DNA of 64,000 nt from Bolinopsis microptera (Eukaryota; Ctenophora; Tentaculata; Lobata; Bolinopsidae). The translations under genes were made by a program, and so were the position numbers. The notes beneath the pieces are model-generated. The model saw only the letters and a program-made list of their open reading frames with translations. It did no database searches and was not told the DNA's origin. This document shows, one piece after another, positions 28,951 through 61,141 of this stretch (position 1 is its first letter; every line of letters starts with the position of its first letter). The stretch is from NCBI RefSeq assembly GCF_026151205.1, contig NC_087077.1, positions 19,899,975-19,963,974 on the forward strand. The letters are read 5' to 3'.

Positions 28951-30196
28951 TAATTATGTTAAAATTGAGCTATTATGGCATTATGCTAAAATTTCTTAGG
29001 TTAAAATTTAATCGTTTTTTAAAAGTGGTAAAAATTGAGGCTCTTTGCGCGCACTTAATTTTTTACTTTGGTGCTATATAGTGGAAAAAGGTAACCATAT
29101 ATCTTGTAATGGAATTGTATTAATCGTGGCCAAAAATAATTTAAAATGAAACCAGAAATCAAAATTTTAGGTGCGCCGCGCATATTTTCTACAATTTACA
29201 TCGTAGTATGAAAATCGAGCGCTAACGGAAATACTGTCATAATTTTACTAGAATATTAACAAGTGAAAGGCTTAACTGAGGTCCACAAACTTTAGATTGT
29301 GCATTGGCGACTTATACAAGTATTACTGGCCAAACTATCATCTTTCCCTCACTTTTCTCCTAAAATATATTAATAATTTAATTACCAAAAATCATACGTT
29401 CATAAAGTTATACGTTCATAAAGCTACGATAAACAAAAATAATAATAATTACAAAAGAACAACTTCAAACACGACAGCAGGGGATTCCAACAAAACACAG
29501 CACACAAAACTAGTGTGAACTAACAACCACAGTCACCTTCCCAGTTCCAGTACTACACCGCTACACGTCATGCATCACAATGTAGAACTAGGAGCTAGAA
29601 GTGAGGTGACGGGGTCACCCCTGCAGATTTCGTCGATTTCAGGTGCCGTCGGCACCATAAAAATTAAAAGCAAACATAAATTTTTCCCCTAAAATCGAAC
29701 GCTTTCTGCGCTAAAAATTGACCTCAACAGAAAAAATTAAACATGGCTTCAAATCCAAATTTGAACCAGAGATTTTTCACTTCCTCTCGATAAACTCAAT
29801 TTTCAACCCAAAATAAAGTCTCAAAGGGGTAAATTACTCAGGTCAGGATTGTAGGCAATGATTATGCCAAACCATACATTTTTGTAAATTCATTAAATTT
29901 CAATTTAGCCTAAAACACCCTATTTTGCAAAAATTCTCCGGGGGGCTGCGCCCCCCTAGCCCCCGCCAATGGGGTCCGCCCCTTACCTGGACCCAACTGG
30001 GGGCAGCGCCCCCAGACCCCTGCCACAGCTTGCAGCTTCGCTCGCCGACAGCCCCCCTCCCCCCCCCCCCAAAGAAAAATCCTGGCTATGTGCCTGAGCA
30101 AAACATAGGTTTAGGGCTTTTCAGATGAATTGGCTCCTCAACAGATACCGACGTACATAACGGTCAATATGTAGTTTAGGTTTACCTGGCCCGTAG
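28951..30196. other. Intergenic DNA with a GC-rich block
   Basis: No gene is recognised. At 29937-30085 a GC-rich block contains inverted words (GGGGGCTGCGCCCCC, GGGGGCAGCGCCCCC) and a C run ending in AAAGAAAAATCCTGG. This looks like a short repeat family. The rest is A+T-rich. Confidence 0.5.
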
Positions 30197-32972: not shown

Positions 32973-33064
32973 GGTAGGTTACGGATGTGCCCGAGGAGGA
33001 AAAAAAGCAAACTTAAGAAAATTTCTCGGGAACTTAAAAGTTCACCTCAAAACGAAATCTGCAC

Positions 33065-33500
33065 CTATGGACGGGGTAATCGGTTCTCAAACAAGTAGTC
33101 AAGTGTACTGTTCATGTCAAACTTCTCCTGAAATTCATGTTTTTCAGCTATTCGTCGGAATTTGTTACTCAACAGCTTCCTATCAAAACCTAATTTAATA
33201 AACGCGTTTAACATCAGTTCAACCCGTTTCCTAAAACCTTCAAACTGATTACAAATTCTGAAAAATCTGACTAGTTGCGACTCAAAAACTCCAATAAGTA
33301 CATCTCTGGACATATTACTACATTTAGGGGCATATTGGACTATATTAAAAGGGAAATCGTCCCGTTTATCATAAACTGTCGAGTCCTCGGTGTTCTCCTT
33401 ATTAAGAGTTAAACTATCAGGATAAATATTGGCTACATGCTCCTGGAAGACACCATCAGAATTAATAGTAGTAATGTCATCAATTAACCTAAATGTGTTA
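33065..33500 (-). mobile_element. Reverse-transcriptase remnant with LIDD motif
   Basis: Reading the minus strand from 33500 to 33065 gives TFRLIDDITTINSDGVF, an RT palm motif of the YxDD type with Leu at the first place, then NIYPDSLTLNKEN, YDKRDDFPFNIVQYAPK, SQLVRFFRICNQFEGF and a basic helix ending KHEFQEKF. The gap between the second and third blocks suggests internal loss. The series resembles RT proteins in cnidarian and ctenophore repeats outside the jockey type. Upstream fingers and palm are not present. Confidence 0.6.
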
Positions 33501-34548
33501 TTAAGTTTATTAAGTTATTAGTTTACTAGTGTGTAGTGTTGTTATTACATTTCAGAAATCATTTCACCTTATTTGATAATCATTTCGATGTGTAATTCGA
33601 TTTTTTATCTATGTTTTCATGTATTCTCAGTGATGTGGAGTACTCATTCATACTGATTCCCATTGTTTATATCATGTGCTTTATCGTCAAAAGTCGACTC
33701 TATGTGTGACAAACTTTGTAATCTTAACTTATAAGATAGTATAATCCTAGCAAGGACTTGTGAGATAGTTGTAAGATTTTGAATGCAATCCTTTTCATTA
33801 CATCCAACCAGTAAAAATTGATCAGTACATCTTCAAGATTGTCATGTTTATATTTCATAGCCTATGAGATTCAAGTCATACTGGTAAATGTGACGTTTCT
33901 TCTAAAGTGCTGACTAAAGGCTCTGCTCCACGTGCTTTCGACTGACCCTTTACGTACAGCAATTGTATATAGGTTCAGTTCATCAGCTGATTACCTCAGA
34001 TTAATGTGAAAATAGGGGTAACTGGACAACAGCTGAATTCTTTATTTGTGAGGTGAATTCATGCAGTCATCATGTTCGCACTTTGTCTAAAATTGAATTT
34101 AAATGCGAAATGACCATTTGCAGCAGCGACTCATAATCTTCATGAAAGGCCTTCATAGGGTGTCGACAACTTACACAGAATAGAATCCTTATAAATAAGG
34201 TTAAAGTAAAGTAAAGTAAAGTAAAAATTATGACATAACATCATCACTAATGTCTACAAAATATCATTGCACTACATGGAAAAATATACAGTAACTATTT
34301 CTCCATCAAATTTAAAAGTAATAATTTTTTCAAATATCAATCATGAATAACAACAACATTAAAAAATTTAATTTATTCATACTTCCCAGTGGAGTAAAGA
34401 TTTATAAAACGTTTCTTTGCTACATAAGGATGAAACCACAGATAATCATTGTGTTTTTCCTTATTACTGATATAACTGCACTGGTACCTTCAATTCTTGT
34501 TAAAACTTCTTTCAAAACATTCCAAAAATGAAAGTCATTTGCAATACA
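33501..34548. other. Intergenic A+T-rich DNA
   Basis: A short AGTAA/AAAGT microsatellite lies at 34205-34230. No coding or structural signal was recognised. Confidence 0.45.
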
Positions 34549-35288
34549 TTAAGAAATCATATTCTTTTTAAAATTTTCCAATCCAATTTTAAAACTCAAA
34601 ACTGTCAAGCAGTTCTTCACCTCCGAAGGGAGTTTGTTCCAATAAGGAACAACCCGCTCTGGAAGAAAAGAACACTGAAGATTCTTGACCTTTGTCACAC
34701 TCTTACTACATCTATTGGATGAAACCAGATTAAGACCTGATCTGCTTGGTCTGAACAAGTCTGAACCATAATCAGTCAAGCCATTAATAACCTTAAAAGC
34801 TTCAATAAGGTCCCCACATATTCGCCGCTCTGCCAGCGTTGTCAAATTAAGGATTTTCAGTCTACATGCTTTTATCTGTTCATTCCAAAGCAGGGAACTA
34901 TGGGTAATAACACCAAATCTTTTTCCTGATCAGATACTTCAAGTTCTACGCCTTTTACTAAATAATTTAAGTTAGGGTTGCTATTAAGATTAATATGAAC
35001 AACTTTACATTTAGCAGGATTAAACTTCAAAAGCCAAATACTCTCCCAGACTTCTAGTTCTACAATATCTTCAGCAACACTGCTGTGGTTAGCTGCATTA
35101 CCAATCAACTTGAGGTCATCTGCAAATAATTTAATCTTATTCTTGACCATATCAGGTAAATCATTAATATAAAGAATAAATATGAGCTCCTTTGTCATCA
35201 AAATAACAATGTCAGTTAATGAATCTGTTATAAATAAATATCTGTTGAATAAAACTTTGAACTTCGTCTCTAGAAAAAATTTAAACAT
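34549..35288 (-). mobile_element. Jockey/CR1-like LINE remnant, RT C-terminal half
   Basis: The minus strand first gives YINDLPDMVKNKIKLFADDL (35170-35110 region) with the FADD form of the catalytic motif, then WLLKFNPAKCKVVHI, the standard follow-on. A second ORF (34845-34549) gives ERRICGDLIEAFKVINGL, GLNLVSSNR and PYWNKLPSEVKNC, the usual C-terminal end of jockey/CR1-type proteins. The two parts are separated by a frame break. Endonuclease and N-terminal RT are missing. Confidence 0.8.
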
Positions 35289-36001
35289 ATTTCCATCGTC
35301 TAACTAGCAAATCTTACAAATTCAATAGTCCTATCAAAATTATTGGAGATTCCAAATCTGCCTGTCAATCAAAGTTCTTGATAAATCTACTGATGCCAGG
35401 CATCAGCTGTTAACACAGATTAAGCCATACATTGCAAGCAACCACTTTCACAATTTTGTTTCTCTGAACAGTACTGTTCCTCAAACTTGAACTTGAGCCT
35501 TTTTTAATTCTGTCTCAGAAGCAACCATCACACCACGTGGTCATGGTCCTTATGACAATAAATACTAAATAGTGAGTAGTTACATCCTGTCGAAAAGTGG
35601 GCGAAACCAAAATATTCCTAATTTATACAACACAGCCAAATTATATAATTTCGTCTAAAATCACGTTGATGAATTTTTGATGCGTTTTTATCATTGTCTG
35701 AAACAATACGATCACGTTCGTGTTGCAATGTCGATATTGTTATTTATTCTTTAAAAGAAAAGAGAAATCATTTGTTGAAATGAAAATTTTGTTTTTATGA
35801 TTGTGCCGTGCCTCACAATAATATTGGTTTCAATCAAATAAGTCTTATCTTGCCACCCACCTTTAATCGAGAAGCTAGACAGCACGAGTTTGGAAGACCT
35901 TTATCTTTCCTTAATAATCTTCGCTATCCAATCTGTTCCCATTTAGTAGAAGCTTCCCATTTAGTAGAAGTTTAAATTCTCAATTTGCTACATTTATCAG
36001 G
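35289..36001. other. TFIIS upstream region
   Basis: No repeat or gene is recognised. The sequence just before the start codon duplicates CCCATTTAGTAGAAG (35937-35970). No promoter element is assigned. Confidence 0.4.
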
Positions 36002-39000
36002 ATGGCAGATGATGTTTTCAGTATTGGTAGAAAATTAGATTCTATTATCAAGGCAAAAGATTTCAACGAGGACAATGTTACAGATTTACTCAAAGCCCTA
36101 CAGTCCCTCCCCATGTCCCTCGAGATGCTGCAGGTATTTGATTTGTATAAGGTATTTCATTGTGCTAATATTAATAAATTGTATTATTTATACCGATAAA
36201 TAATGTATTAAATTGGTATCCCAAAAAATACGACCAAGTGATCAGTTTGAAATCATTGTTGTTCTGGTCATGTGCTGCCTGATAATTACCAAAATAAACT
36301 TGAAACATTGCATAACGAAACTAACCCTTACAGAAGACACGTGTTGGATTATCAGTGAACACGATCCGAAAGAGAACCGAGAACCCCGAATTAGCTTCCC
36401 TCACCAAATCTCTCATCAAGAGTTGGAAAAAACTTGTACCAGGTAGGGTAACTCTTACACTAAACAGAAAAGTATACAAAAATCCCAAAAATGTACACAT
36501 TCTTGTCATCATACACATCATGTATATTAGCGACAATAGAAACGCCATTTTCGGACGTGAGGAGAGTGTGAGAGTGATGACTCCTCAAACTACATTAAAT
36601 ATATTTCTTCTGTAATATCCTCAATAAATGTAATAGATTTGTAGTGTTGTAACCAGTTTAAAATATTAGACTTGTCATAAACCTGCAGTACTGATAGTTT
36701 TTAATTGTTAATGTTATTTCTCATTTTTAATTTATATGACTTTTAAATGAGTGTTTTTCCACAAGTTTATTCATCGGTTTGAAACCAATTATCAATTTAT
36801 TTTACTCTACGTCGGTTTTTATCTTTCAGTTCCCAACACCAAACCTAAAGAAAACTTGAAATCAGAAGAAAAAGTAGCGCCGGTAAGTTTCAAATTATTC
36901 ACAATCTCACTGATTATAAAAATTTTTAAATAGCTCTTGGTATCCAATGGCAATTTCTTTTCCAAAAAGAATTGAGGCGAACTGTTCTCTAGATAAAGAT
37001 TTAAATATTTAATAAAATATAACATAGATAAGGATAGTGGCTGGTACCTGGTCACTGGTTATTGTTCATACTATAAAAACTGTAGTTATTTTCAAAGTAG
37101 AAGATGTTTATAAAAAGGACATTGTTTTCAGGTGAAAGAAATGGAGCCAGCTCTTGCTCTCTCCCCTTCTCCAAAGGAAGAAGAAGATCTCCCAGAGGGT
37201 GCAGAAGATTTGCAGGACCCAGTAAGGTAGGCAGTCAGACCTTTTAAAGTGTTAAATATGTTAAATATGTTACATATGTGGATAGATTGGCGCTTCGTTT
37301 GTGTTGTTCATTGTCAGAAAGTTAAACAAGAATTAGCTTATAATTGAATGCAGTTTGTAAGTGTTTCTAAATAGAATAGAGTTTTAAATTAGATATCATA
37401 GTTAATGAAATTACCGACACTCGACAGTCAACATAGAAATTGGTATTTAAACGATTTGCTTCAATTTAAATTTGTAGATCATAGTTTAATAAACACCGTT
37501 CAGGAACAAATGTAGAGACCTGCTATACAATGCAATGAAGAAGAGAAGGGTTGAGGATGGTGGCGAAGCTAAAGTCAGCGTGTATCAAGTAGCGTCTGAT
37601 ATTGAGAAATGCATATTTCAGGAGATGAGGGGTACTAATATGAAGTATAAAAACAGGTCAGATAAGAAATATTAATCATCCATAGCATAGTCGACATTGT
37701 TTGTCTTCAATATTTTTCGCAAATAGATAAATAAATAATAATAAATAAAGTCAAATTTCATACAGCACTTTATCGGTAAACATTTGGTTATACTTTCTTG
37801 GTAATGTTTGGTGATGCCTTGACTCGGTTTCTTTAACACTTCATGTCGATAGACTTTTAAAATCGAAAAGCTGAAGTTTGAAAAAATGTACCTCCCAGGA
37901 TCCGAAGCAGAGTGTCTAACTTGGGAGACGAAAAGAATCCAGATTTCATAACCCTGGTTTTAACTGGCGGCGTGTCGGCCGAAATGGTTGCTAAGATGGC
38001 CCCTGAGGTGAGATCTTTGCTCAGTATAAACAATATATATTAATTATTGATAATTAGTTGTTGCTTGGTTTCCCAAAAAGTGCTCAACTAAGTTGCAATC
38101 AAGCAGGAGCATTATTTTTCACTCGAAAATTTACTCTTCTCGAAGCTCAAACTATACTTGATTTTAGCACGTACAGGATTGTATGTGGTTAGTGGTTGAG
38201 GTCTCCTAAAGTTATATACCCTCTCGATCTCAACCACCAACTTCGAATCTCTCCACGACAGAGATCGCATTTTATCATATACTAACTTTATCCTATCAGG
38301 AAATGGCAAGCCAGAGGATGCGAGAAAAAAGGAACGAGTACCAGAAGGAAGCGATAAGAGAGGCGCAGATAGCAGTAACAAGCGGAACTAAAACTAATCT
38401 CTTGACTTGCGGGAAGTGCAAGAAGAGTGACGTGCTCTATAACCAGCTGCAGACGAGAAGTGCGGATGAACCCATGACTACTTTCTGTGTTTGTGAGCAC
38501 TGTGGTCATAGATGGAAGGTACGTTTTAGAATTTTTATTGATTAGTAAGTTAAAGCAATAGCAGCAAATCTGGGGAAACTTGGTGGACATTGACTTTTTT
38601 CACACAATTTGAGTATGTTGACTTCAACATTATGTTGCAGCTCATTGTGGTTAATCTCAATGTTGGAGTGATGTTTTTCTGGTGCACAAAACACTGCAGT
38701 ACGGTTATGTTGAATAATTGTGGTTAATGGGTCATCTATGTGGCCACTATGGTGGTTAAAATACCAGTTTTAGGGTTAACCACCATTTTGAGATATGATA
38801 TTATGAACTGAGTAGTCATTATATTGAGATCATATCATGGTGCAACTATCACAAAAGTTTTCAACCCTCATGGGGGGCATTTTGTGGTCCTAATGGTGGT
38901 TAAATTGAAGATGAACGGTGAGCTATAAATATTGTTCATTTGTGCATGGATGATAATTTTGTATCACAAATGTGCAATTTAAAAGTATGGTTGATTTGAG

Positions 39001-40600
39001 GTGGTTAATATTCGTAAAAAGTGCTAAAAAGATGGTTAAAATGTCAAAATTTGTTGTTAACCATCAATCAAAACATTATTAATGATTTTAGTCAACATTA
39101 TATGGTCAACAAAGGACATTTGAAGGGTCTTGATAAAAGTTATCAAGAAATGTTGTCATAAAAGTGGTTAAAAGGGCTATATTACTTGCTAGGCTGTTGA
39201 ACAAGGCATCTATTAAAGTGAAAATTAACCACAATATGAACTTCAGATAATGGTTTGCTATCCAAATGAGTGTATATTTGTTTGCAAATGCATAATTGAC
39301 CCCAAGTTCATGCATTCCGATCAATGTGCAGCTAAGGTGGTTAAAATGTCTCGAAAATACCCTATATTTGCACTAATTAACCATTTTTAGAGCACATATT
39401 AGCTTTGTAAAGCTATAGCTGGCCATGCTACATTATCTAGATATAACTACCTGCTCATTTATATGACCAGAAACATTGCTGAGTCCTATGTTGCGTCCAT
39501 CATGGTTAATAAAGGTCTAAAATTTACCAAAATCAGTGTTTTTGGTCGTTTTAACCGCCATACGGCCACACATTTTGTTGCATTATCTTTAAAATCACTT
39601 ATTATCCTTCAGCTATCTCTCATAATCAAATATCAAAACAAAATAAGTCACCAAAAGGTCAGATTGTGCTGAATAATGGTTAATTTGTGATGGCTTCTGC
39701 TGACCGAAGGTCCAAAATCAACATGTTTTAACCACATTATGGCCACATCTAAGGTTTTATGGTATTGGGACCATAGCCAAAAGTTTTGGGCACCTGGATG
39801 GTGTACTCTGCTTTTGGAATTATGGTGATATCTCAATGCTGTGCCATTCCAGGTGGTTAAGTACGCGCGCGCACGCGCACGCATACACTTTTGGGGTTTT
39901 TTGATATACCACAGTTGGTGGTTAACCGTTTTACATTACACCTTCACTAAAAGTATTGGGCACTCTAGTGGTGACATAATATATAAAGAAATTAAGCATA
40001 AACTAAATATGTTGGCCTACAGATGGTTAAGTACGCGCGCGCGCACGCACGCATACACTGTAACATAAACACATATAAACCACTCCACAGACCACATTTA
40101 TTAACCTTTTTAATTTCTTTCTTCAACTATGTGTCAATGAACCGTTTCTGTTCAATAATGACCATCAATTTTAACTGTAACACTTATATCTTCAGTGTAG
40201 TAAGGGTTTGAGTGTTAGAAGTACAAAAATATGTCCACTAACAAATCAGTCATATTTCGACTACTTAACCACCTAACTCAGCACCAAAATGTTCTGGGAT
40301 TTATTTCGTTGCACTATCACGAAGCTATGACATTTTTGGACCTATGTAAATATTCAGATTACTAAAATTCATAATCTGTGATTTTTAAGGGGTGGTTAAA
40401 TGCTTCAAATTGGTGTATTTCAAAGTTTCCCCAGATTTGCTGCTATTGCTGGTTAGTTAGTTAGAGAGTTAATTAGAGTGATCAGTGAGATTATTATTTT
40501 ATTAGTAAGATTATTATTTCTTTGGACAGAAATTGCGTATCATTTTTTGTTGTTGTGATGTGCCCCAAAATAGTAACCATTATTATTTCAGTTCTGTTGA
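36002..40600 (+). CDS. TCEA: Transcription elongation factor TFIIS, eight coding exons, 292 aa
   Basis: Exons in phase: 36002-36133, 36334-36442, 36830-36882, 37132-37226, 37504-37656, 37899-38007, 38300-38518, 40592-40600. Domain I (LW/TFIIS-N bundle) is residues 1-80 ([32 protein letters not shown]). An acidic linker follows. Domain II (CRDLLYNAM to [18 protein letters not shown]) binds RNA polymerase II. Domain III is the zinc ribbon with CGKCKKSD and [11 protein letters not shown]; the catalytic Asp-Glu pair that reaches the polymerase active site is present ([10 protein letters not shown]). TFIIS stimulates transcript cleavage by stalled polymerase II. Length fits the family (about 300). 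The last coding exon is nine bases (Phe-Cys-stop), giving the usual -WKFC end. The last intron is enlarged by an inserted element. Confidence 0.95.
38554..40450. mobile_element. 1.9-kb element in TFIIS last intron with 28-bp inverted ends and many GGTTAA motifs
   Basis: The ends are perfect inverted copies of AGCAATAGCAGCAAATCTGG followed by GGAAACTT. Inside, GGTTAA or TTAACC, mostly as GTGGTTAA, occurs about twenty times on both strands across the full length. Two near-identical blocks with GGTTAAGTACGCGCGC and GCACGCATACACT lie at 39852-39890 and 40023-40060. No ORF of family character was found, so it is non-autonomous. The repeated motif is probably a transposase binding site. No target duplication could be fixed with confidence. 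Confidence 0.8.
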
Positions 40601-41287
40601 AGTCCTCCAAAACCGACGAAATAGTCACAAACTACTATCAGCTATGTTTCACGCTATCGGCAATCAGATACCTGCACAAACTGCAGACCAAGTCAAAGAC
40701 GTAATACTGTTTTTATCGAGGATTCGATGCCATGTAGCGTATTACATATTCTTTTAAGTTTTATCTTGACTGTATTTAAACTGTATTTTACACAATTTAA
40801 GATCAATTTAATCTCGCTGAAATCCTCATTTAAAACTGTTGCAGTTAAGCCTCATCCAATTAAATTATTGCAAGCTGAAAGCGCTGTTTCTACTCTATTT
40901 ATAGAATATAAATGTGAATACGGTAAATAGTAATAATAATAATTAGTAAGAAATAAATCGCAGCATAATCAAGAACATAAACTCACTCAGATATAATAAA
41001 TTGTGTGCATTTTTGCACACGTGAGGCATTTAAATAGCGTCCAGTGTTATTATAGCATGATGCAGAGTGTGTGGTATAATACAGTTTTACAATTTGATTG
41101 ACAGTCATATTTAATCAAACTAATTTGTTTGAACACTATTACTATTACTGATTTGTATATTATTACATCTTTATCAGTCAATGTCCCTTAATAAATATCC
41201 TTACTACTTTAATATGAAAATAATAAATAACTCCATATTAAAGATCTCTAGTAAAATGTTGTAACCATATTATTTATCCCAAGCAAG
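40601..41287. other. TFIIS 3' UTR and atp6 upstream region
   Basis: A+T-rich. AATAAAT occurs at about 40950 and could end the TFIIS transcript. No repeat is recognised. The atp6 start codon has AAG just before ATG (a purine at -3 is favourable for initiation). Confidence 0.45.
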
Positions 41288-43271
41288 ATGTTGAGCTGCT
41301 CCAGAATTATGCTGCGGCAGGGTCTGTGCACTGGTGCCCGCGCACTAGCAGCTCCTATCCAGTTCACCAACTACATCCATACTACCCATGTCCAAAAAGA
41401 CGAGACTTCTGCTTCTGGGGCGCTGATTGAAGCCGCCAAGGGAATGAGGGTTATCCCCACAAGAGGCCAGGCTGCCAAAGAAAAGCTCTACGGTTTCGTC
41501 CAAGTAAGTAATCATTGAGTATTTATCCTATTCCTTGCTATTACTATCATGGATGAAAATGAGTCACGATTCTAATTTATCTTACTCGGACATTGTCAAT
41601 GGCCATTGCAATATGGTATATTTCCCCCCTGTAAACTGCCTACAACAATAACAATTTCCTTTCACCAATCTAGGTAAACTATAGGTAAAAATATAATATT
41701 AATCATAAGCTAAAATGTACTAATCTTTGTATTCTAAATGGGGAAAAGAAGAAACATTGTCAGTCAGTCGAGAAAATTGTCAGTCACTATATGGCAGCTT
41801 TGTAGATGTTGTGACAATGCTAGTAGTGGTCCCAGGCTTGCGACTGGAATTGCGGTGTTAAATCGATTTAACGGTGTACCAACGATCCACCTCCCACTTG
41901 TTGTTTGGTACTAAAGGGATTTTTGGCCCGTCATAATTTCCTTGCTAGTTGTCTGGATGAGTAGTTTTCTTCCTCCGAGAACTCTGCTGGCTCCCATAGA
42001 GACAACCTATTGCTAGTTTGAAAGGTGTATTTATTATCTAAGCATCCGACTGGTAATGTTCTCTGTCAGCATTTAGGAACGCGCGCCGGACACGCACCTA
42101 CTTTACGCGCGGTCCGGTGCATAATTTCTCCAATTAAACTAACGTTTGCATTCGTGGGAATAAGTTAAAAGCTAGTTGAGCCAAGAACGATGCATTTAAT
42201 AATATACTTGCGAAGAAGTTCAAAATTTTACAAGATGTAAGAAGAATTACGAGCTTAAAAGCGAGGCATCAAATGACGTCGGACAGGCGACAATTTGTAA
42301 AATTATAACTTATAACGATTGCTTTTCAGGATTTGTGTAAACAGAACTTGGGAGAGGAAGGTGCCCGTTACTTCCCCTTCGCCCTTGGTCTCTTCACCAC
42401 CATCGGTTTCTGCAATGTCACAAACCTTCTGCCTTACATCGAGATGCCTACTCAGGTACATTTCATATATCAATTTCATATCAATTTCACTTGCCTCCAT
42501 TCGAATACTTTTCTGACTGGGCTGATTGAAATCATAGATTTGAGAATTTAGAATGTCATCTCAGATATTCTGTCTGATATAAACTTTGCAACTGCAAAAA
42601 AACATCATCATAACTTTTAGATTATCGGGTGCACAGTGGCTATGAGTACCACTCTGATCGCTGGGCTCACAATAAAATGCATCGCAAAACACAAGCTGGA
42701 TTTCGCCTCGTTCTTCTTCCCTCCTGGAGCACCTGTTGGGTTGGCACTGTTGCTTGTTCCTGTTGAAACGGTGAGTTTTTAAATTTATCTTCTTGTTGTT
42801 TTCGATTAAAATATGATACAAGAATTTTGAAATACGACTGAATATAATTTTTAAAGAAGAATTTTGATATTTTTGTTGACACATCTTACGAGCCAACTTC
42901 ATTTGAAATCACTTTTGTTTAACGTAGTTAAAGTATCCTTATCATCTTTTGCTTATACATCTTGTTTACCTTAATCTAATAGTGACTTACAAAATACACT
43001 TTTTCAGATCTCATTCTTCTCTCGGGCTGTCTCCCTTGGAGTTCGTCTTGGAGCTAACCTGACTGCCGGCCACATGATCCTGCATATCATCTCTGATTTC
43101 GGTGCCCAGATGCTGGCTAGCGGAACTGCAGGTGGCGCTATCGGTGGGGTCCTCTGCACCGCAGCACTAGTCCCTGTGTGTATTCTGGAGATTGCCGTCG
43201 CTGTAGTACAGGCCTATGTGTTCTGTATGTTGACCACCATGTACCTGAACGACGCCCACGAGCTTCATTGA
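41288..43271 (+). CDS. ATP6: Nuclear-encoded mitochondrial ATP synthase F0 subunit a (ATP6), four exons, 251 aa
   Basis: Exons in phase 0: 41288-41503, 42330-42455, 42621-42770, 43008-43271. The leader MLSCSRIMLRQGLCTGARAL is rich in Arg, Ser and Leu without acidic residues, as in mitochondrial targeting peptides. Next come CNVTNLLPYIEMPT, FFFPPGAPVGLALLLVPVET and the signature helix SLGVRLGANLTAGHMILHI; its Arg is the essential proton-channel residue facing the c-ring. A final hydrophobic part follows, EIAVAVVQAYVFCMLTTMYL. The protein forms the half-channels for proton flow in the inner membrane. AATAAA at 43286 lies 15 bases after the stop. Introns and normal nuclear codons exclude a recent mitochondrial insertion. 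In animals, nuclear atp6 is established for ctenophores, so this gene points to the lineage. Confidence 0.95.
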
Positions 43272-43448
43272 GCAGATAAACTGATAATAAAATAGTTCTT
43301 TTCATAAATTATTCGTTTGAGATTATTGTATGATGATGTACTAATACTTCGACTTCGCTTTTGGTAATCTCGCTTTACTCAATTCTCAAAGATTATGGCG
43401 GTGCAACGATTTTGAAATGAAATTGGAAATACGAAAGGGAATTAATTT

Positions 43449-43624
43449 TAGTGGTCGTTCACATATTGCGTAATAATTTTTTGGAACATTTTTACCCCCC
43501 CCCCCCCTCCCCCCCCCCCTCCGTAATCAGTTTTACACATAGCTATTGTGTCAAAATTACGCTAGTGTAATCATTCGGAAACGCCCCCCCCCTCAGCTGA
43601 TTACGTAGTATGTGAACGACCCCT
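43449..43624. mobile_element. MITE, GTTCACATATTACGTAA family (copy 2), with C-rich core
   Basis: It starts TGGTCGTTCACATATTGCG and ends CTGATTACGTAGTATGTGAA followed by CGACCCC. The core has C runs and TTTTACACATAGCTATTG. The stretch 43655-43738 repeats part of the core in opposite orientation, perhaps from another damaged copy. Confidence 0.8.
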
Positions 43625-43883
43625 TCCGATGGAAACTACATTGCGATGAGGGTGAGGGAGGGGTTTCAAAATGATTACACTAGTGTAATTTTAACACAAA
43701 AGCTATGTGTAAAACTAATCACGGAGGGAGGAGGGTGTTAGTAAGTGATTTAAGTTAATATGTTATTAAATTAAAATGCAAAAGCATATCATGTATTATA
43801 TAATATATTACTACAAACTACCCAAACTATGAGTGGGCGCACGCCGCACACCATATCTCCACAGAACTAGCATATCCAACTTG

Positions 43884-44513
43884 ATATACGTTGTTATGTA
43901 TCACGTCGTGACCCCCATTGTCGTTTCACAAAGGGGTCGTTCACATATTACGTAATCAATATTTGAGCAATTTTTAATTTTACCCCCCAACCGTAATCAA
44001 GACCCAACCCCCCCCCCTCCTGACAGCAATATTACGTAATCATGGCCGGACCCCCCCCCCCCCCCCCCCCCTTGACTTTTTTCCTAGAAAACACTTTTCT
44101 CTACGTTTCATGCTACCCTGATCATGCTATCATGATGAGCCGAAATCATTGTTATGATATCCGGCCAAGCACCTTCTAAACTACTAGCCGGATATTCGAT
44201 CAATTTCTAAATTTTATCACTATCAGAGTAAAATTGAGTGTAATTTGGATTAAAATATTGTCAAATTGTTATTATTCTAGAGGGTAAAAAAGAAAATTTT
44301 GATTACGTAATCAACGACCGAACCCCCCCCCCCCCCCCGTAGTCAACCGTATGCATTTGGAAACCCCCCTCCCCCCTCGGCTGATTACGTAATATAATAT
44401 GTGAACGACCCCTAAGAGTAAGACCCCAAACTAAGACACTAAAAAACTCCTTTTAGCGTTTCTACGATACAGGGGGAGCCGCGCGGCGGGTCATAACGTA
44501 TGACAAGATATAG
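43884..44513 (-). mobile_element. P1 repeat split by a 482-bp MITE
   Basis: P1 sequence (ATCACGTCGTGACCCCCATT, TGTCGTTTCAC) stops near 43931 and resumes at about 44448 (TTTCTACGATACAGGGGGAG, GGGTCATAACGTATGACAAG). Between them lies a complete MITE, 43932-44413, starting AGGGGTCGTTCACATATTAC and ending ATATGTGAACGACCCCT, with several long C runs inside. The MITE therefore inserted into an existing P1 copy, giving a relative age. Confidence 0.85.
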
Positions 44514-45900
44514 TTATTCATATACGTATGAAATAATACGTATGCAATCATGGTTGTATAATGTATAGTACTAGCTTGATTCTGCATGCAATTGATGTCA
44601 TATGTACGCCGAGCAAAATCAAACTGGGAATCATTTAAGATAATTTTCGAGGCAATAAAAGATATGCAAATAAACAAGTTGTGGAGCCGTCACAAGTTTA
44701 CTCTTTCTTTCTGCATTTTGTTAACTATGTTATTTTGACTAATAAGATCGTGGTAGCGTCTTGGTGGCTAAATGTAATTTGCACCGTAATTATAAGGTTA
44801 CCGCAAAAGAAGATCGGAAAGCTTTGTCAGATCTTCAGATCGTTGATCTCGAGCAGAATAAATTCAATTATAATATAAAGCAGATCAAGGTCACCGCAAT
44901 TTATCCATTATCGAGGACCGGCATTTTTCAAATAACTCTGCAACTCAAAAGTTCTTAACTTTCGTCTGATGACGAAATTGTTGCGCGTATATAAACCCAA
45001 GTACATATTTGGAGGAAAGCTTACATATGAACAGTCACTAACTAGTAGACAGCAGTGACTGATATTTAAGCAGCATCACACTGTTTTATTTGTCACAACA
45101 TTTCTAGACACGCATAAGGTAGTTTTTAAAAATTTCTTATCAGGAGAAATGTTGTGTCTTAAATGCTGCTTTACTCATTTCCAGACGCATTTGTTCAGAA
45201 TACAATAGTTTGCGACCACGCTTATGAATTTTACGTTCATATTTAATTATATTTTCCTTGTAAGATTTCATATCTAATTAATATTTATTTTCCTGTTAAT
45301 GTTATTCATTCTGTTGTTTACAAACTAGGAGCCAACTGGGAGCTGATTGGACATTTGGTTCGTTCACTGATTCGGTCTGCTTTCATTTTCAATATCTAGA
45401 TCTGTCGAACTTGTTTATTGAACAATTAGGAGTCATTTATAAGATTGTTAAAAAATAAGCTGTCACAATTATATTGACAATAATATGAAATTTCACCTAA
45501 CAACCGTGACTGTAACTGTAAGTGCCACACTGTGGTCCACACTGACACACTAGAAGTATCCCAGTTTGTTTTAGTTATGCAACTATAATAGAGTTCAACT
45601 AATATATCATAATTCTTCCACTTCTTTTGTTGATATTCCTGTCCGTCAAATTTTGCTTTTACGGCCACGGGAGGCCAGCCATTACTGTGCCTTGCAGATT
45701 TCACATCTATAGGGGGTCAAAAGGGCAGGGTGGTAATCGCACTATATAGTGACAACACAATAGTAACAAGCACTTTATAGTGACTGTTCGTAATACTAAT
45801 ATGGTTCGGTTTCCCTCTATATACTATATATGTTGCGTTTATAGCCGGGGCCCGGGGGATACACAATTTTGGACTCGAGGCTTCCCCCTGGTAATTGGTA
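44514..45900. other. Intergenic DNA, nothing recognised
   Basis: Ordinary A+T-rich sequence with several short ORFs that show no family features and no splice structure. No repeat stands out. Confidence 0.4.
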
Positions 45901-46385
45901 ATGCGATCTCGGAAGGCAGACCTCCCCTGGCCCCTTTGCAACGTACGAGCTCGGAAGCTGAAGCTCTCGATACGGGAGGTACTAATCGAGATTGCAGATT
46001 GACTCGGACCGAAAATTTTCCAAGTCAAAATTTTTTCAAAGTTTTTCGTAAAACCACTTTTCTCCACGTTTCATGCTACCCTGTTCATTAATAGCCGAAA
46101 ATATTTTTCGGTTTTTCGAAGTCTGCACCCACCCCTCGATTTCCAATTTGGGATCGGACTCGCCTGTTTATGCGATCTCGGAAGGCAGGCGATCCCCTTT
46201 GCAACACGAGCTCGGAAGCGAAAGCTCTCGATACGGGAGATACGTATCGAGAATGACTCGATACGTATCTCAAAATTTTTTCAAAGTTTTTCTTAAAACC
46301 ACTTTTCTTAACGTGTCATGCTAATGCTATACCCGGCCCTGTTCATTATTAGCCGACAATTTTTTTTGTTTTTCAAACTCCGCAC
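45901..46385 (+). repeat. Tandem duplication, period about 269 bp, roughly 1.8 copies
   Basis: ATGCGATCTCGGAAGGCAG at 45901 recurs at 46170. Shared downstream words are GAGCTCGGAAGC, CTCTCGATACGGGAG, AAATTTTTTCAAAGTTTTTC, TAAAACCACTTTTCT and GTTCATTA-TAGCCGA. Copies have diverged. The part after 46490 has CCGG-rich inverted words (GCCGGATATCCGG) like those near 63600. Confidence 0.8.
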
Positions 46386-46763
46386 CTAGTCAAACAATTT
46401 TTAATTTTTTAAGGATTCGAGTTAAAATGTGACAAAACTATGCATTTCAAGATTTTAGAAATAAATTTTTAAAAGAAATATCTGGCAAAAATCCGGCAAC
46501 ATTTTTTGAAACCGAAGCCGGAGCCGGAACCGGATATTGAAGCCGGATATCCGGCCGGATCTGGATTCAGCCGGATATCCGGTCGGTTCCTAATCAGAAA
46601 CGTCGGATTATATTGAAAAATCAACCATACTTTTTTATACCTTTATACCAAATGAAAAGTTATCCAAAAAGCTAAAAACTCAAAAGTCACCGCTTGTAAT
46701 CATTTTATTGATAATTAAAATTACTTTTGGTTCTTACGAAACGTTATACAATTACATGTACTT

Positions 46764-47424
46764 TATGAGTATTGCTGAAAGCACAGTGTAAGGCCTACAC
46801 GGACCGCCTCTAACTAGCCAATCCCTGTTTACATGCCGTGTAGCAGGGGACTAGAAAGAGCTAAACTAGTAAGCGGGGCATAGCCAATATACAATACTCC
46901 CATCATTGAGTATATTACCAACCAGAAGGAAAATTTCCTTGTGTTTGGAATCTACCAAGACGAAAGTTGTACAATCCAGCGAAATTCCGAAGAATCATTC
47001 CAGTAGACTAGGCGCATTGCAACCACAGCCACGGAAATACTTATGAGTATTGCTGAAAGCACAGTGTAAGGCCTACACGGACCGCCTCTAACTAGCCAAT
47101 CCCTGTTTACATGCCGTGTAGCAGGGGACTAGAAAGAGCTAAACTAGTAAGCGGGGCATAGCCAATACACTATACTCCCATCATTGAGTATATTACCAAC
47201 CAGAAGGGAAATTTCCTTGTGTTTGGAATCTACCAAGACGAAAGTTGTACAATCCAGCGAAATTCCGAAGAATCATTCCAGTAGACTAGGCGCATTGCAA
47301 CCACAGCCACGGAAATACTTTTGTGTTTGGAATCTACCAAGACGAAAGTTGTACAATCCAGCGAAATTCCGAAGAATCATTCCAGTAGACTAGGCGCATT
47401 GCAACCACAGCCACGGAAATACTT
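46764..47424 (+). repeat. 278-bp tandem duplication, about 2.4 copies
   Basis: TATGAGTATTGCTGAAAGCA starts at 46764 and again at 47042, a 278-base step, nearly identical. A third, 5'-truncated copy (about 47320-47424) repeats only GTGTTTGGAATCTACCAAG to CACGGAAATACTT. The unit includes GCCTACACGGACCGCC and ACATGCCGTGTAGCAGGGG, able to pair as short hairpins. I cannot tell whether it is a satellite or a duplicated small-RNA gene; no clear 5S, snRNA or spliced-leader signature was seen. Confidence 0.85.
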
Positions 47425-47574
47425 ATGATAAATCAAAAAACTGCTGATCAGCACCGATATAACCAAAACACAAAACATTTTATTCTTTAACTCAACTTTC
47501 GAGTTTACTGAATTTCTTGTCCTCAGCTCAATTTATACATTGTTATAGTCCAAGTCCTCGATATTTAATTATTT

Positions 47575-47865
47575 AATTTGCTTGTCTACTGGCCCTGACG
47601 TTGCGAGTTCGAATCCCAGTTGGGCCAAGATTTCAAAATTGATGGACAGCCGTCATTCACCAAACCATGGTGTGAATGGTAGTGGCTCTCATAAGAGCTG
47701 CGAAAATAACATGAGTGTATATGCCTGGGGTTGCGTCCCGACTATGCTGGCGCTGCAGGGAAATCTGTACCGAAAGGACCGTGGCCGCACCGCAAAATAA
47801 AAGGAGATCGGCCCCTCGATCCTAGCTTGCTAGGTTCGCCATTGTTGTTGTGTTGTGTTGTCTCT
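47575..47865 (+). mobile_element. Possible tRNA-derived SINE
   Basis: GTTGCGAGTTCGAATCCCAG followed by TTGGGCCA resembles a tRNA T-arm with a Pol III B box (GTTCGAATCC) and acceptor end; CTGGCCC just before could be a remnant of the 5' side. There is no room for a full tRNA (anticodon arm not found). An unrelated body follows to a GTTGTTGTGTTGTGTTG tail, the layout of a SINE. Without a second copy the borders are uncertain. Confidence 0.45.
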
Positions 47866-48029
47866 CGATATTTACAACTGTCTAATGACTTTTCTTTTTG
47901 GAAAACGAAATTAGATATATACAGAATAGTATTACAGGTTATATATTATCAACATCATCATTGCAAAAATAAAAGTAAAAACCCAGTCCATGGGACTGAA
48001 AAAATTAGTTGGCTTTCGATTCGAAAGAG

Positions 48030-48255
48030 TTAAGATAGATTTTTAGACTCGATTTTCAGAATTTGCGATTGAAAATCGCTCGCGCAATACAATTACACAT
48101 AAGCGCTGACCTTAAACCGGCGATAATTTCGGCTAGGAACAATATTTTTCCATGGGATTAAAAGCAGCTGGTAAATATCACTCCCTTCTACCAGAAACAA
48201 ATATAAAGTCAATTTCGAGAGAATTTTGATGAAGACCCCCCCCCGGCCCCCTTAA
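48030..48255. mobile_element. Half copy of the TTAA foldback element
   Basis: It matches the right arm of 27201-27870: GACTCGATTTTCAG, GATTGAAAATCGCTCGCG, GGCGATAATTTCGGCTAGGA, TTTTTCCATGGGA, ending in a C run and TTAA (48252-48255). The other arm is missing. Confidence 0.8.
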
Positions 48256-48442
48256 ATTCTAAATCGTCCATGTTAGATAATTCATAAGTTTTGTTTGAGG
48301 TATTTCTTGATCCTCTGATCTAATGCACAATAAAATTAATTTCCTAATTAAACATGATAATTTACACCGATAATAATTTATAATATCGTTGTAATTCTGC
48401 TTCTTTTTATAAGCAATTTTATTGCATAGAAGTTTCTGATTC

Positions 48443-49045
48443 TCAAATGTCCTGGCTTGAGGTCCCATGCCACCCGTTACTTTTTCCGCATGGACATTGT
48501 GATGGTAAACGATCCAGATCTAAGTTGTACCGCAATCTGATAGAATCCCTGAATTCAGATTTATTTAGAACGAAACCATGTTTTCTAAGTGGTAAACATG
48601 AGAGCCAATTTGAGCTCCATGGTTCGCTAATCTGCTCCAAAACCCTTGCAGTATCCTTATCAACCTTTGTAAGTATCTCCTCTTGTTGTTCTTTATATTC
48701 CAAAACACGCTGTTTTAACATGTCTTGGAGGTCATCTGTCGATTCCGTGTTATAGGTTGTAGCAAGAGATTTGCTTTTCATGGAATTTACCAGTTCCCGG
48801 GTTACCAAAAGCGATGCAGCATGTTCTTTTTTCGCAAGATACTCCAACTGGTGTATAAGCGATACTGGACAACCAAATATAGTTGGAATAAGCTCATGAG
48901 TGATTATTTTGTCAAGAGGGCCCATATAAGAGCTGATATCTAGTGTCCTCATAAAATATGTAAATTTGTGGCGGACACCGTGCGTAAAACAAGCGTAGGC
49001 TGCCTGAGGCTGTGATTTGGCAAACTGTACTAACTTTTTTAACAA
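48443..49045 (-). mobile_element. LINE reverse-transcriptase C-terminal remnant, 200 aa
   Basis: The ORF begins KLVQFAKSQPQAAYACFTHG, then HKFTYFMRTL, continues through a charged helical stretch (EYKEQQEEILTKVDKDTARV) and ends SSNWLSCLPLRKHGFVLNK, EFRDSIRLRYNLDLDRLP and a CPCGKSN zinc-type motif. That order is seen after the RT domain in a family of non-LTR elements common in invertebrate genomes, whose proteins end in a Cys-rich motif. The RT palm itself is not in the window, so this is a 5'-truncated copy. Confidence 0.75.
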
Positions 49046-50649
49046 CTGTCTAATGACGCGTTATTTACATGCTCCTTTATATTAAGAATGTTTTCTGTTT
49101 TTAACAAGATACATGGTCTTCCTGATCTGGACCTCGATTTTCATTTAGACAGGGACTGATTTTCATTTAGACAGGGACTGATTTTCCGTTTTTCGTCAGT
49201 GCTAATATTAAGATCTGTAGGAGAAAGGGTGTTAAACTTTGTCTGATCAATGTCTCTTTCATAATCAAAATGGTGATAGTACGTCATGTGTATTGATAAC
49301 CATTACTTGAAACTTTTGAATGCAATCTTATTATTAATGCTCATGGTTTTAAGCGTTTGATCCAAATAATAACAATCAAAATGAAGTGAAGGTAAAATTG
49401 CGAAATAAGAATCTTTAGATACTGTGAACTATTAGTATTACTTATCATTGCAAAACTCGTTTTAAATTATTGATGTCTTTTTCAAGATCAAGATGGTCAT
49501 ATTACGTCGTATTGAAAGCTTATCTTTTATTAACTGATAATAACGGTTATTTGTTAACTATTTGGTGCAGCTGTAGAATACTAATGACTAAATTAATCAT
49601 CTGGCAACTTTAAGTTATATAATTTAAAGTTCCCAGATGGTCGCGTAAGCGAGCAAAATGAGTTACAAAGAATGAAATACACATTAATCAATCAATTATA
49701 TTATTATAAAGACTTTTAACGAAAAGCAATTTGCCTTAACTACTTTTCCGTACAATCCTTAAACTCTGTTTATACTATTTGTCAGCTGTCATAAATTCTT
49801 GGGGACGTTTATGTAACGGTGATGCACTATTAGGTCGCATGATTTTATCAGCTGTCATTACCAGACTTCCTATTATATTTATAACTGCATTTTCGACATT
49901 CTGGTTTTATTGACCATCCCTCAACAAATTGACACGTGACTTTCTTTTCGCAAATCAGAACGTAGCGGTTTGGCCGTGAACAGGTCACTGTAACGACTGT
50001 GTCCTCTCTCACACTGTTCCATTCTGTACTCAATCTTACATTTAAATTAGATATTAAACAATTTGAAATTATTTTCTGTATGCCAAGCTTGCCTTAATTT
50101 CAATTGAGGATTGGGCACCGTTTCAGCATCAATGTTTCTTTTGTCTAAAACACCACGTTCATTGTAGTTGTACAATAACATAATAAAGGTATCATATTAG
50201 ACTAAGAGGTAAGCGTTTATACTGTAGACAGTCGCACAGGCCACAACTCAGTTTGCAAAAAAAAGGACAGGACAACATGCTGTCAGCAGTGGAATAACGA
50301 GCATGGCTGGACGGTTAGGATTTCCTAACCGGCCCCTCATTACGTCACCAGAAATATAAGAATGTAGTAAATTGCGAAAGCTCAGATAGGATGAGCTTTC
50401 GCTCCATTCTTATATTTCTGGTCACGGAATTCCTTTGGTTTCATCACGAGTCTGTTTACATTGTAAATGAAAAACACAACGTTTGTGCTTAAATTTCCGA
50501 TCCACTTTTATTTCAGTTCCTGACCAACGCATCAAGTTCCGCCAAACAAGTTACACTAACTCATTTGTCTTTACACGTTTCTGTTTATCAAATTACGGAC
50601 TACAGAAATGTTCCGTGTCGGTTTCGCATCATTCACATGCAATTGCGTG
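49046..50649. other. Intergenic DNA with one possible exon
   Basis: Mostly A+T-rich. An inverted pair near 50345-50425 (AGAAATATAAGAATG... / CATTCTTATATTTCTGG) with GAAAGCTC/GAGCTTTC forms a hairpin of about 80 bases. A sushi-like segment on the minus strand is listed separately. Confidence 0.5.
49862..50033 (-). CDS. Possible sushi/CCP-like exon
   Basis: The minus-strand frame encodes REDTVVTVTCSRPNRYVL, CEKKVTCQ, then GWSIKPEC. The spacing Cys...Tyr-x-Leu...Val-Thr-Cys...Gly-Trp...Pro-x-Cys follows the complement control protein (sushi) fold. An AG precedes the segment on its strand (TACAG then AATGG). No neighbouring exon was found, so this may be one exon of a larger extracellular protein or a relic. 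Confidence 0.45.
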
Positions 50650-50654
50650 CCAGT

Positions 50655-50783
50655 TGTTATAAATTGATACTATATTTTATATTTAGACTGATAACTGATC
50701 ACCTATTATATTTTGTAGGGTCTAGGTTTAGATCCTGATTCACGATTTCCCTGTTTCTCTTGTACCACGGCTAAGACGTTACA
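50655..50783 (+). repeat. 5' LTR
   Basis: 129 bp, TGTTATAA to GTTACA, base-for-base the same as the 3' LTR. It contains TATATTTTATATTTAG, which could serve as a promoter TATA region. TAA at 50772-50774 closes the Gag frame upstream, so ATG 50784 is the first usable start. Confidence 0.97.
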
Positions 50784-53700
50784 ATGGCGACGAGGATTAT
50801 TGGACAGTTGGAACTCTTAACATCAGATGCAGATTGCAGAACATGGTTTGAGAGGTTTGAGTTGTTCGCTCAAGCCAATCAGCTATTCAGAGCGGTACCA
50901 GCAATACCGGAACTCGTTAATGACAACAGCAACGCTGCAGCAGTGGAAACAGCAAGGACGGATGCGCAGAATGCGACTCAAGGAAATACCGCAGTTTTCC
51001 TATCGTACTTGGACAGTGGCATGTATGGGCTAATCAAGAGTTTGAGCAACCCAGATGAAGTGAGATTGTGCACCTATGACACCCTGAAGAAAAGGTTAGT
51101 AGATCACTTGATGCCGCAACCTGCAATACATCTTCAGAGATATAAGTTTTCTTCCTGCAAACAAGTGAACGAGACAGTTGGTCAATACATCAACAAACTG
51201 AAAACAATCGCAACCTTTTGTGACTTTGAGAACTTTCAGGAGAGAATGCTTGATCAATTTATTGCTGGAATGAAGAGTGTGAAAATGAAGAAAAGGCTGT
51301 TAGGGGAAGCCAACTTAACTTTTGAGAGAGCGGTAGAGTTAGCTTTAGCTGCTGAGAAGACAGAGGAGGAAGCAGCGCAGATGAACATGAGCGAGAGTGA
51401 TGTTAACAGAGTATCATGGGAGAGACGGGAGCCGAACAAATTCAAAGCTTCAGTTGTATGTACGAGATGTACATTGAGTGGACACACTAAGGACGACTGC
51501 AAAACTAAATGTTTCAAATGTAAGAAAACTGGACATATCAAGAAGAACTGTTATGTTGTGAAGAAAACTCACAATGTTGAAGAGCAGAGTGAGATTGAGA
51601 GTCAGAGTCCAGATGTCAATAGTTCTTTGGAGTGGTCAGTGAGACACGTGAATGTGTCAGGTAACGTTACGGTGTCAGGTAATGTTATTGAACCACTTGA
51701 AATTGGAATTGATAATGTTTTTTGTCAGAAACCAATGGTTAAAGTTACTATTAATGATGATATTTTTTTGAATATGGAGTTTGATAGTGACAGTAGTGTG
51801 AGCGTAACAACGGTGCAAGCTTTGTGTGAGAGTGCTCGTGTGAGTTCGTCAGTTGTGTATGATGCACTGGTAAAGACGAAGAACACTCTGAAAGTTGCCA
51901 ACGGCGAGATTAAGTCTATACTCGGGAAGATGAAAGTTAAAGTGAATTTTAAAGGTAAATGTAGAGAGAACATGGAGCTGTATGTTGTGGAGGAACCGTT
52001 TCCGACTCTCTTTGGCAGAACTTGGATTCAAGTTTTCTGTGGTTACGATTGGTTGGAACAGCTATTCAATGGAAAAGACCGTGTTGTGTCTAATGTACCC
52101 TCTAAATGTAGTAAGTTATGTAGTAGTGTAGTGAAGTGTGATCAGTCATGTAATTCTCAATGTTCAGTAGATGTTTTAGGTGAGATGAGAGGCGAGTCGT
52201 CTTGTGTAATGTCTGTTGTTGACAAAGACGAAGAGTCAAAGATTGGTAAAGACGAAGAGCCAAAGATTGACAAAGACCTTCAGAGTGAAGAAGGATACCC
52301 TCTCAACCAAGTCTCTGAAGGAATAGTAACTGAGAAGATGATCACGGATTACGTGGAAAGTTTAAAACACGACAAGATATTCAAACCTGGAATTGGACAG
52401 ATCAGTGGAGTCGAAGCTAAATTCACGCTGAAAGAAGAAGCTCAACCCGTATTCTTAAAGGCTAGGAACTTGCCGTATTCTCAACGAGAGAAAGTCAAGA
52501 ATGAGTTGATGTCCTTGGTTGATCAGAATATCTTGGAGAAAGTTGAAAGCAGTACCTGGGCTACGCCTATAGTAGTTGTCGAGCGTGGGCCAAAGTTAAG
52601 GATATGCGGTGACTACAAAAGTACCCTCAACAAGCACCTAGAGACAAAGATGTATCCTTTACCGAGTACTGAAGAATGCTTTAATTCAATGGTTGGAGGA
52701 CAGAAGTTTTCAGTTATCGATGTGAAGTCTGCTTACAATCATGTGAAAGTCAGAGAGAAGGACAAGAAGCTTACAGTGATAAACACTCATCTCGGTCTAT
52801 TTCAATGGAATAGATTACCCTACGGTGTGTCAAGTAGTAGCGGTATCTTTCAGGAGACCATGGACAACACGTTGAAAAACATTGATAAAGTTTGCTGTAG
52901 GATCAATGATATTTTGATATCAGGAAAAGATGACCGGGAGCACTTGCAGAATCTTCAAGAGGTAATACGACGATTGCAGGAACGAGGATTTCGGTGTAAC
53001 CGGGCTAAGTCCAAGTTTTTTCAGGACTCAGTTGTTTATTTAGGTCATCAGATATCAAGACATGGAATACAGCCAGTAAAATCCAAGGTGGCAGATTTGA
53101 AAGCAGCTCCAGCACCGACTAACCTGGCCGAACTAATTTCATTTCTGGGTGCGGTCAACTACTATCGTAGATACCTGCCCAACTTAAGTTCAGTTATTGA
53201 ACCTCTAGATAGTTTGAGATCATCACCATGGAAATGGACCAAAAAGGAGGAAGTAGCATTCAAAGAGTTAAAAGACATGCTCTGTTCTGATGCAGTGTTG
53301 ACGCTGTATGATCCTAACAAGAAGTTGAAGCTTGACACTGATGCCAGCAGCAAAGGACTTGGAGCGGTGTTGAGTCACGTGGACAAAGAAGGAGAAAGAC
53401 CGATCGAATACATATCACGAACTTTATCGAAAGCCGAGAAGAACTACAGTCAGATTGATCGTGAAGCCCTAGCTATAGTATGGGCGGTCACAAGATTTCA
53501 TGTGTATTTGTGGGGAAATCATTTTGAGTTAGTGACGGACCACAAGCCATTAACATTTATTTTTGACCCAAAGAAGAAACTGCCAGAGATGGCAACAGCT
53601 AGAATAACTCGATATGGATTGACCTTAATGAGTTATCAGTATAGTATCAAGTACAGACCTACCAAAGATCATGCCAATTGTGATGTACTTTCTAGGCTGC

Positions 53701-54998: not shown

Positions 54999-55307
54999 GC
55001 AACGTGATATTTCAATAACCAGTCACGATGACCAGTTTTTAAGAAATTGTTTTTTTAATTAAATTATAACTTTTATACAGTAATCCAAGTTTATAATTAG
55101 CCGGGAGCACTAAGTTTGTTTTTAGATCACTCGAGTTCTGACAGTGAAAACACGAAATTTTTGATTTTGCGCCTCACAGAAAGTTGTTTGCCGGCCGAAC
55201 TGATAATCTATGTGCAGTGCGGTGCGGCGTTAGCATTTAATAAATGCGCGTTTTCGGGAACGAGACGCATTTTGACATGTGCTTTCCGATCTAACGAGAG
55301 AGAGAGC

Positions 55308-55436
55308 TGTTATAAATTGATACTATATTTTATATTTAGACTGATAACTGATCACCTATTATATTTTGTAGGGTCTAGGTTTAGATCCTGATTCACGATT
55401 TCCCTGTTTCTCTTGTACCACGGCTAAGACGTTACA
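55308..55436 (+). repeat. 3' LTR
   Basis: 129 bp, identical to the 5' LTR, preceded by a GAGAGAGAGC purine tract and followed by the CCAGT target duplication at 55437. Confidence 0.97.
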
Positions 55437-55441
55437 CCAGT

Positions 55442-60920: not shown

Positions 60921-61141
60921 AAATCAGGTTGAACCCCCCCCCCCCCCCCCCCCCCTTAAATTTAGTTTTAGATGAGGGTGAGTTATCAGTATACAATCAA
61001 AATATACCGAGAACAAAAAAGATTATTATAAAAATAGAAAGCGAATTTCAAAACAAAACTTAAACATCCCAAACTGGAGGTAAACCATTAAAATGTTTAA
61101 ATGAGTCAATATAAAAGAAACAATGACATATTATTGTTACT

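What the first reader, a model, noticed from the sequence alone, without database searches (positions are those of the whole stretch)
41288..43271. atp6 moved from the mitochondrion to an intron-bearing nuclear gene
Seen directly: four in-phase exons encode a complete subunit a with the essential Arg in SLGVRLGANLTAGH and an N-terminal targeting-type leader. Known: animals nearly always keep atp6 in mtDNA because the protein is very hydrophobic; ctenophores are the established exception. Inference: the window is ctenophore. The second exon's helix is unusually rich in Cys, Asn and Gly, which may reflect lower hydrophobicity needed for import.
Basis: partly seen in the sequence, partly recalled or inferred. 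Interest (0 to 1): 0.85.

Follow-up and report, generated by a model that had tools for sequence, protein, structure and literature searches.

The report
Nuclear ATP6 gene of a ctenophore
In this comb jelly the gene for a core part of the mitochondrial ATP-making machine sits in the nucleus with introns, as is already known for other comb jellies, and its protein seems to have swapped its first membrane-crossing helix for an import tag, as in other nuclear versions of this gene.

Summary
Four phase-0 GT-AG exons (41288-41503, 42330-42455, 42621-42770, 43008-43271) encode a complete 251-aa F-ATP synthase subunit a. The genome, 264.65 Mb, matches published Bolinopsis microptera statistics. Nuclear ATP6 is already reported in Mnemiopsis, Pleurobrachia and, from transcripts, Beroe, so the gene is a new member of a known kind.

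First, no transmembrane helix 1 is seen: residues 1-52, where H1 lies in yeast, bovine and Paracoccus, hold only an unhydrophobic targeting-type leader. Two other nuclear subunits a also lack H1 as a membrane-crossing helix: Polytomella, and Toxoplasma, which lacks H1-4. Inferred: dropping H1 leaves a matrix N-terminus and two hairpins, easier to import. Low hydropathy is limited to helix 3; the core as a whole equals bovine ATP6.

Second, the assembly holds another copy on C11, with an identical protein and 3 synonymous differences, in a ~30-kb block at 1.41% substitution. One end abuts an N run, so a misplaced allele is at least as likely as a duplication.

cox1 gave no match, so loss from mtDNA was not testable.

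The parts
41288..41503 (+). exon 1: targeting-type leader (aa 1 to about 52) and the start of amphipathic helix 2; no transmembrane helix 1
   Evidence: splice sites and frame; hydropathy and alignment
41504..42329 (+). intron 1, phase 0, GT-AG
42330..42455 (+). exon 2: rest of helix 2 and helix 3
   Evidence: alignment
42456..42620 (+). intron 2, phase 0, GT-AG
42621..42770 (+). exon 3: helix 4 and the loop to helix 5
   Evidence: alignment
42771..43007 (+). intron 3, phase 0, GT-AG
43008..43271 (+). exon 4: helices 5 and 6 with the essential Arg177; stop codon
43286..43291 (+). AATAAA, possible polyadenylation signal
29015..64000 (.). block repeated on C11 (11162705 down to 11132606, opposite strand; on C6 it runs on to window-equivalent 64392), holding a second atp6 copy

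Best explanation
This is a nuclear gene for mitochondrial F-ATP synthase subunit a (ATP6) of a ctenophore, very probably Bolinopsis microptera, descended from a mitochondrial atp6 that moved to the nucleus early in ctenophore history. Shown: a complete four-exon gene, the essential Arg, the regions of helices 2-6, an N-terminal leader and no hydrophobic segment that could be transmembrane helix 1. Inferred: the leader directs the precursor to the matrix, a protease removes it, and Oxa1 inserts helices 3/4 and 5/6 as two hairpins. Losing helix 1 leaves both ends in the matrix, so no N-terminal tail has to be exported, and removes one strongly hydrophobic segment. The mature protein works in Fo as the usual proton half-channel subunit against the c-ring.
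For: Family match and intact exons. The copy on C11 encodes the same 251 aa; its 3 differences in 756 coding nt are all synonymous. Alignment with yeast subunit a (6b2z_a) starts at residue 53 against yeast residue 51 of 249 and runs to both C-termini. The best 19-residue hydropathy upstream of that point is 0.68, against 1.99-2.56 in 4 of 4 comparators that have the region. Nuclear ATP6 is reported in M. leidyi and P. bachei, a transcript in B. forskalii, and lack of atp6 in the mtDNA of six ctenophore species. Polytomella subunit a has an amphipathic, not membrane-crossing, first helix (called nuclear encoded, 'presumably' so). Toxoplasma subunit a lacks H1-4, the sequence in their place being a predicted targeting sequence.
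Against: No transcript, protein or mtDNA evidence was available; cox1 gave no match in the held assembly. The leader's helical moment is ordinary. Core hydropathy is no lower than in bovine ATP6. Membrane topology, cleavage and import are not shown.
Confidence: 0.92

Rival explanations
1. The gene is a non-functional nuclear copy of mitochondrial DNA (numt) and the working atp6 is in mtDNA.
For: The held assembly has no recognisable mitochondrial contig to exclude it.
Against: Three spliceosomal-type introns and an intact frame with a leader. Two copies differ only at synonymous sites. Six other ctenophore species are reported to lack atp6 in mtDNA.
Confidence: 0.03
2. The gene came by horizontal transfer from a bacterium or an alga, not from the animal's own mitochondrion.
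For: Highest identity among the 13 other rows used is to Polytomella ATP6, 37.9% over 161 columns; Paracoccus is next at 35.5%.
Against: The tree puts it with four mitochondrial-type rows and the one alphaproteobacterial row (100/100) but resolves only yeast with Pichia inside that group, with a long-branch warning for window and Polytomella. The 49 bacterial loci of a pattern-limited scan are 21-31% identical and, by their titles, all Bacillota. Shared reduction of helix 3 could create the likeness to the alga (inference).
Confidence: 0.05
3. The two atp6 copies (C6 and C11) are a true recent interchromosomal duplication that gives the animal two ATP6 genes.
For: Both are intact and lie in chromosome-size contigs, in a 30-35 kb block with different insertions on each side. 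The C11 end at 11132606 has no N run.
Against: Divergence of 1.41% over 19726 aligned columns is below the 2% single-nucleotide heterozygosity reported for another ctenophore, Hormiphora. The other C11 end abuts a 7290-base N run. The published assembly exceeds its k-mer size estimate, 265 against about 254 Mb. So a misplaced allele is at least as likely.
Confidence: 0.4

Closest known systems
Nuclear ATP6 of other ctenophores (Mnemiopsis leidyi ML33722a, Pleurobrachia bachei; Beroe forskalii transcript)
   Same: atp6 absent from their mtDNA and present in the nucleus or transcriptome (passages of PMC6991124 and PMC5924465)
ATP6 of Polytomella (chlorophyte alga)
   Same: nuclear, has a targeting leader, first helix does not cross the membrane, low helix-3 hydropathy; 37.9% identity over 161 columns
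   Different: independent transfer (inferred); longer leader, 94 residues by N-terminal sequencing; keeps an amphipathic H1
Nuclear subunit a of Toxoplasma
   Same: nuclear; a predicted targeting sequence takes the place of lost N-terminal helices
   Different: it lacks H1-4; here only H1 is missing
mtDNA-encoded ATP6 of yeast and cattle
   Same: helices 2-6 and the essential Arg
   Different: these keep a hydrophobic H1 that crosses the membrane in fungi and mammals

Membership tests
F-ATP synthase subunit a (PF00119 / TIGR01131) | profile match over the curated cut-off | tested here: met
   161.2 bits against 33.9; 178.1 against 102.6
F-ATP synthase subunit a (PF00119 / TIGR01131) | essential Arg in helix 5 | tested here: met
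   Arg177 aligned with yeast, Pichia, bovine, Paracoccus and Polytomella
F-ATP synthase subunit a (PF00119 / TIGR01131) | canonical six helices H1-H6 with membrane-crossing H1 | tested here: not met
   no hydrophobic segment before helix 2; two known nuclear-encoded members lack it too, so it is not required for membership
Nuclear-encoded ctenophore ATP6 | located in the nuclear genome with introns | tested here: met
   20.9-Mb contig, three GT-AG introns
Nuclear-encoded ctenophore ATP6 | atp6 absent from the organism's mtDNA | not testable with these tools
   no cox1 match and so no recognisable mitochondrial contig in G000
Nuclear-encoded ctenophore ATP6 | groups with ATP6 of other ctenophores | not testable with these tools
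   I had no other ctenophore or sponge sequence; the tree resolves only mitochondrial/alphaproteobacterial rows against Bacillota
Nuclear-encoded ctenophore ATP6 | mitochondrial targeting sequence | tested here: inconclusive
   0 acidic and 4 basic residues in 1-37, but moment reached by 932 of 5000 shuffles

The most novel reading that the evidence does not exclude
Loss of transmembrane helix 1 is a repeated step when atp6 moves to the nucleus: ctenophores would be an independent animal case beside chlorophyte algae and apicomplexans. An even number of membrane helices with a matrix N-terminus, more than lower overall hydrophobicity, is what lets subunit a be imported. It may be tied to ctenophores' missing atp8.
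Probability: 0.45. Interest if true: 0.6.

Novelty: new member of a known kind. Interest (0 to 1): 0.38.

Why it matters
Why animals keep atp6 in mtDNA is an old question. Ctenophores show that it can leave. If the price is loss of the first membrane helix, as in algae and apicomplexans, then topology and not only hydrophobicity is a barrier, which can be tested by import assays and bears on attempts to express ATP6 from the nucleus. The nuclear transfer in ctenophores itself is already known.

Tried and rejected
Tried and led nowhere: a search for cox1 to find the mitochondrial contig (0 matches; divergent ctenophore cox1 could also have been missed by the first look); a search for atp8 (one match, E 0.665, 18.8 bits against a cut-off of 23.4, not accepted; short genes split by introns could be missed); a genome-contig scan for relatives (49 loci, 21-31% identity, by title all Bacillota, uninformative); the papers by Pett et al. 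2011 (PMC3313829) and Kohn et al. 2012 (PMC4024468) are not held. Whether they mention helix 1 is therefore unknown.

Rejected: a helix 1 hidden in intron 1 (alignment runs on without a long gap from exon 1 to exon 2); general hydrophobicity loss (core equals bovine, and bovine is the lowest of six in helix 4).

In the tree only 8 of the 49 bacterial loci were given, picked by number, with six other rows; none of the 8 was dropped by the stop-codon filter. Polytomella is only the aligned part, residues 146-309, so its helix 1 was not measured by me. The 1.41% counts pieces over 300 bits only; weaker pieces, such as window 61033-61141, were left out. The hydropathy, moment and biological-scale values are recalled.

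Full report
What is there. Four exons at 41288-41503, 42330-42455, 42621-42770 and 43008-43271, all phase 0 with GT donors and AG acceptors, give a 251-aa protein. It matches ATP-synt_A at 161.2 bits over profile positions 22-217 of 217 and TIGR01131 at 178.1 bits. Among solved structures its best matches are ATP synthase subunit a of 5dn6 (Paracoccus by recall; E 1e-30) and 8f29 (yeast; E 2.4e-29), 23 distinct sequences in all at E up to 10. Arg177 aligns with the essential Arg.

Which organism. The window lies on contig C6 (20.93 Mb) of a 264.65-Mb assembly; C11 is 20,825,282 bases. A table in PMC11797021 (passage seen) gives Bolinopsis microptera 265 Mb, 13 chromosomes and N50 20.8 Mb, but 346 scaffolds where G000 holds 232 contigs. 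The fit is close but is no proof of species.

What is known. Passages of PMC5924465 and PMC6991124 state that ctenophore mtDNAs lack atp6 and atp8, that ATP6 is nuclear in M. leidyi and P. bachei, and that a transcript exists in B. forskalii. The transfer is therefore already known. In this assembly cox1 is not found, so no mitochondrial contig could be recognised and loss from mtDNA is not shown here. atp8 gave no acceptable match, in line with its not having been found in the nucleus before.

Helix 1. Residue 53 of the protein aligns with yeast mature residue 51, just after the yeast hydrophobic segment, and the alignment runs on through helix 2 with a one-residue gap at most. Upstream, the best 19-residue Kyte-Doolittle mean is 0.68; bovine, yeast, Pichia and Paracoccus have 2.56, 1.99, 2.42 and 2.13. 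Residues 1-37 have 4 basic and 0 acidic residues, but the helical moment is ordinary (932 of 5000 shuffles reach it). So a leader stands where helix 1 should be. In Polytomella subunit a the first helix is amphipathic and lies on the matrix face, while in fungi and mammals it crosses the membrane (passage of PMC5747523). In Toxoplasma H1-4 are missing, and the corresponding sequence is predicted to be a targeting sequence; the same paper calls the algal subunit nuclear encoded and says that it lacks TM helix 1, and it does not name ctenophores (passages of PMC7785744). Euglena, whose subunit a is mitochondrial, keeps all six helices (passage of PMC6930080). The ctenophore gene looks like a further case. 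Searches of the held library for ctenophore with subunit a, ATP synthase and hydrophobicity listed 1 paper, with ATP6, transmembrane and targeting 2 papers, and with Mnemiopsis and ATP synthase subunit 1 paper; passages of these three papers say nothing of helix 1 in ctenophores. Pett et al. 2011 and Kohn et al. 2012 were not readable, so priority is open.

Hydropathy. Helix 3 is lower here (1.25) and in Polytomella (1.16) than in the four comparators not encoded in a nucleus (1.77-2.07), and both have a Cys-Asn there. Against the simple view, the whole core (147 shared columns) is 1.09 here, 1.10 in cattle and 0.98 in Polytomella, with yeast, Pichia and Paracoccus at 1.51, 1.45 and 1.35; helix 4 is lowest in cattle (0.92). 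By contrast COX3, still in ctenophore mtDNA, is reported among the most hydrophobic known, with a T bias (passage of PMC10118304).

Mechanism. Inferred: matrix import by the leader, cleavage, Oxa1-type insertion of two hairpins, normal proton channel function. Without helix 1 the N-terminus need not be exported to the intermembrane space. The import route and the topology are established knowledge of the family or inference, not results here.

Origin. A tree of 14 rows places the protein with mitochondrial-type and one alphaproteobacterial subunit a (100/100), apart from 8 Bacillota rows; inside that group only yeast with Pichia is resolved, and a long-branch warning applies. Transfer from its own mitochondrion is the simplest reading; the data do not prove it.

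Second copy. C11:11156767-11155024 (minus strand) holds the same four exons; the protein is identical and 3 of 756 coding bases differ, all synonymous. The family search found just these two loci, each in two pieces (4 matches, 5 of 5 candidates scored). The shared block runs from window 29015 to 64392 (beyond the window's end) and C11 11162705 to 11132606, in 16 aligned pieces over 300 bits with 278 mismatches in 19726 columns (1.41%; 0.32-5.42% by piece) and large insertions private to either side. The C11 block ends at a 7290-base N run on one side, which may be a gap or a withheld stretch, and at plain sequence on the other. Hormiphora has 2% single-nucleotide heterozygosity and many indels (passage of PMC8527503); the published B. 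microptera assembly is larger than its k-mer estimate of about 254 Mb (legend in PMC10232365). A misplaced allele and a recent duplication both remain open.

Noticed in passing
window 38554-40451: DNA transposon of about 1.9 kb with 28-bp terminal inverted repeats, present on C6 and absent at the matching C11 site; 37 other near-full-length copies at 91-98% and one partial copy were listed, a lower bound.
   Followed up: partly
window 50658-55437: Insertion private to C6 that holds a 1407-aa frame with gag, reverse transcriptase, RNase H and integrase domains in that order, as in Ty3-type retrotransposons (the type is named from recall).
   Followed up: partly
window 28502, 43600, 43939: Motif GTTCACATA(C/T)TACGTAAT, two of three downstream of atp6 in opposite orientations beside long C runs; looks like a small inverted-repeat transposable element family.
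   Followed up: no
L007 465 down to L006 1652 (C11 11150465-11141652): About 8.8 kb on C11 with no counterpart at window 48923, an insertion private to the C11 copy.
   Followed up: no
window 55880-56500: Frame with ankyrin repeats within the shared block, so more than atp6 is present twice.
   Followed up: no
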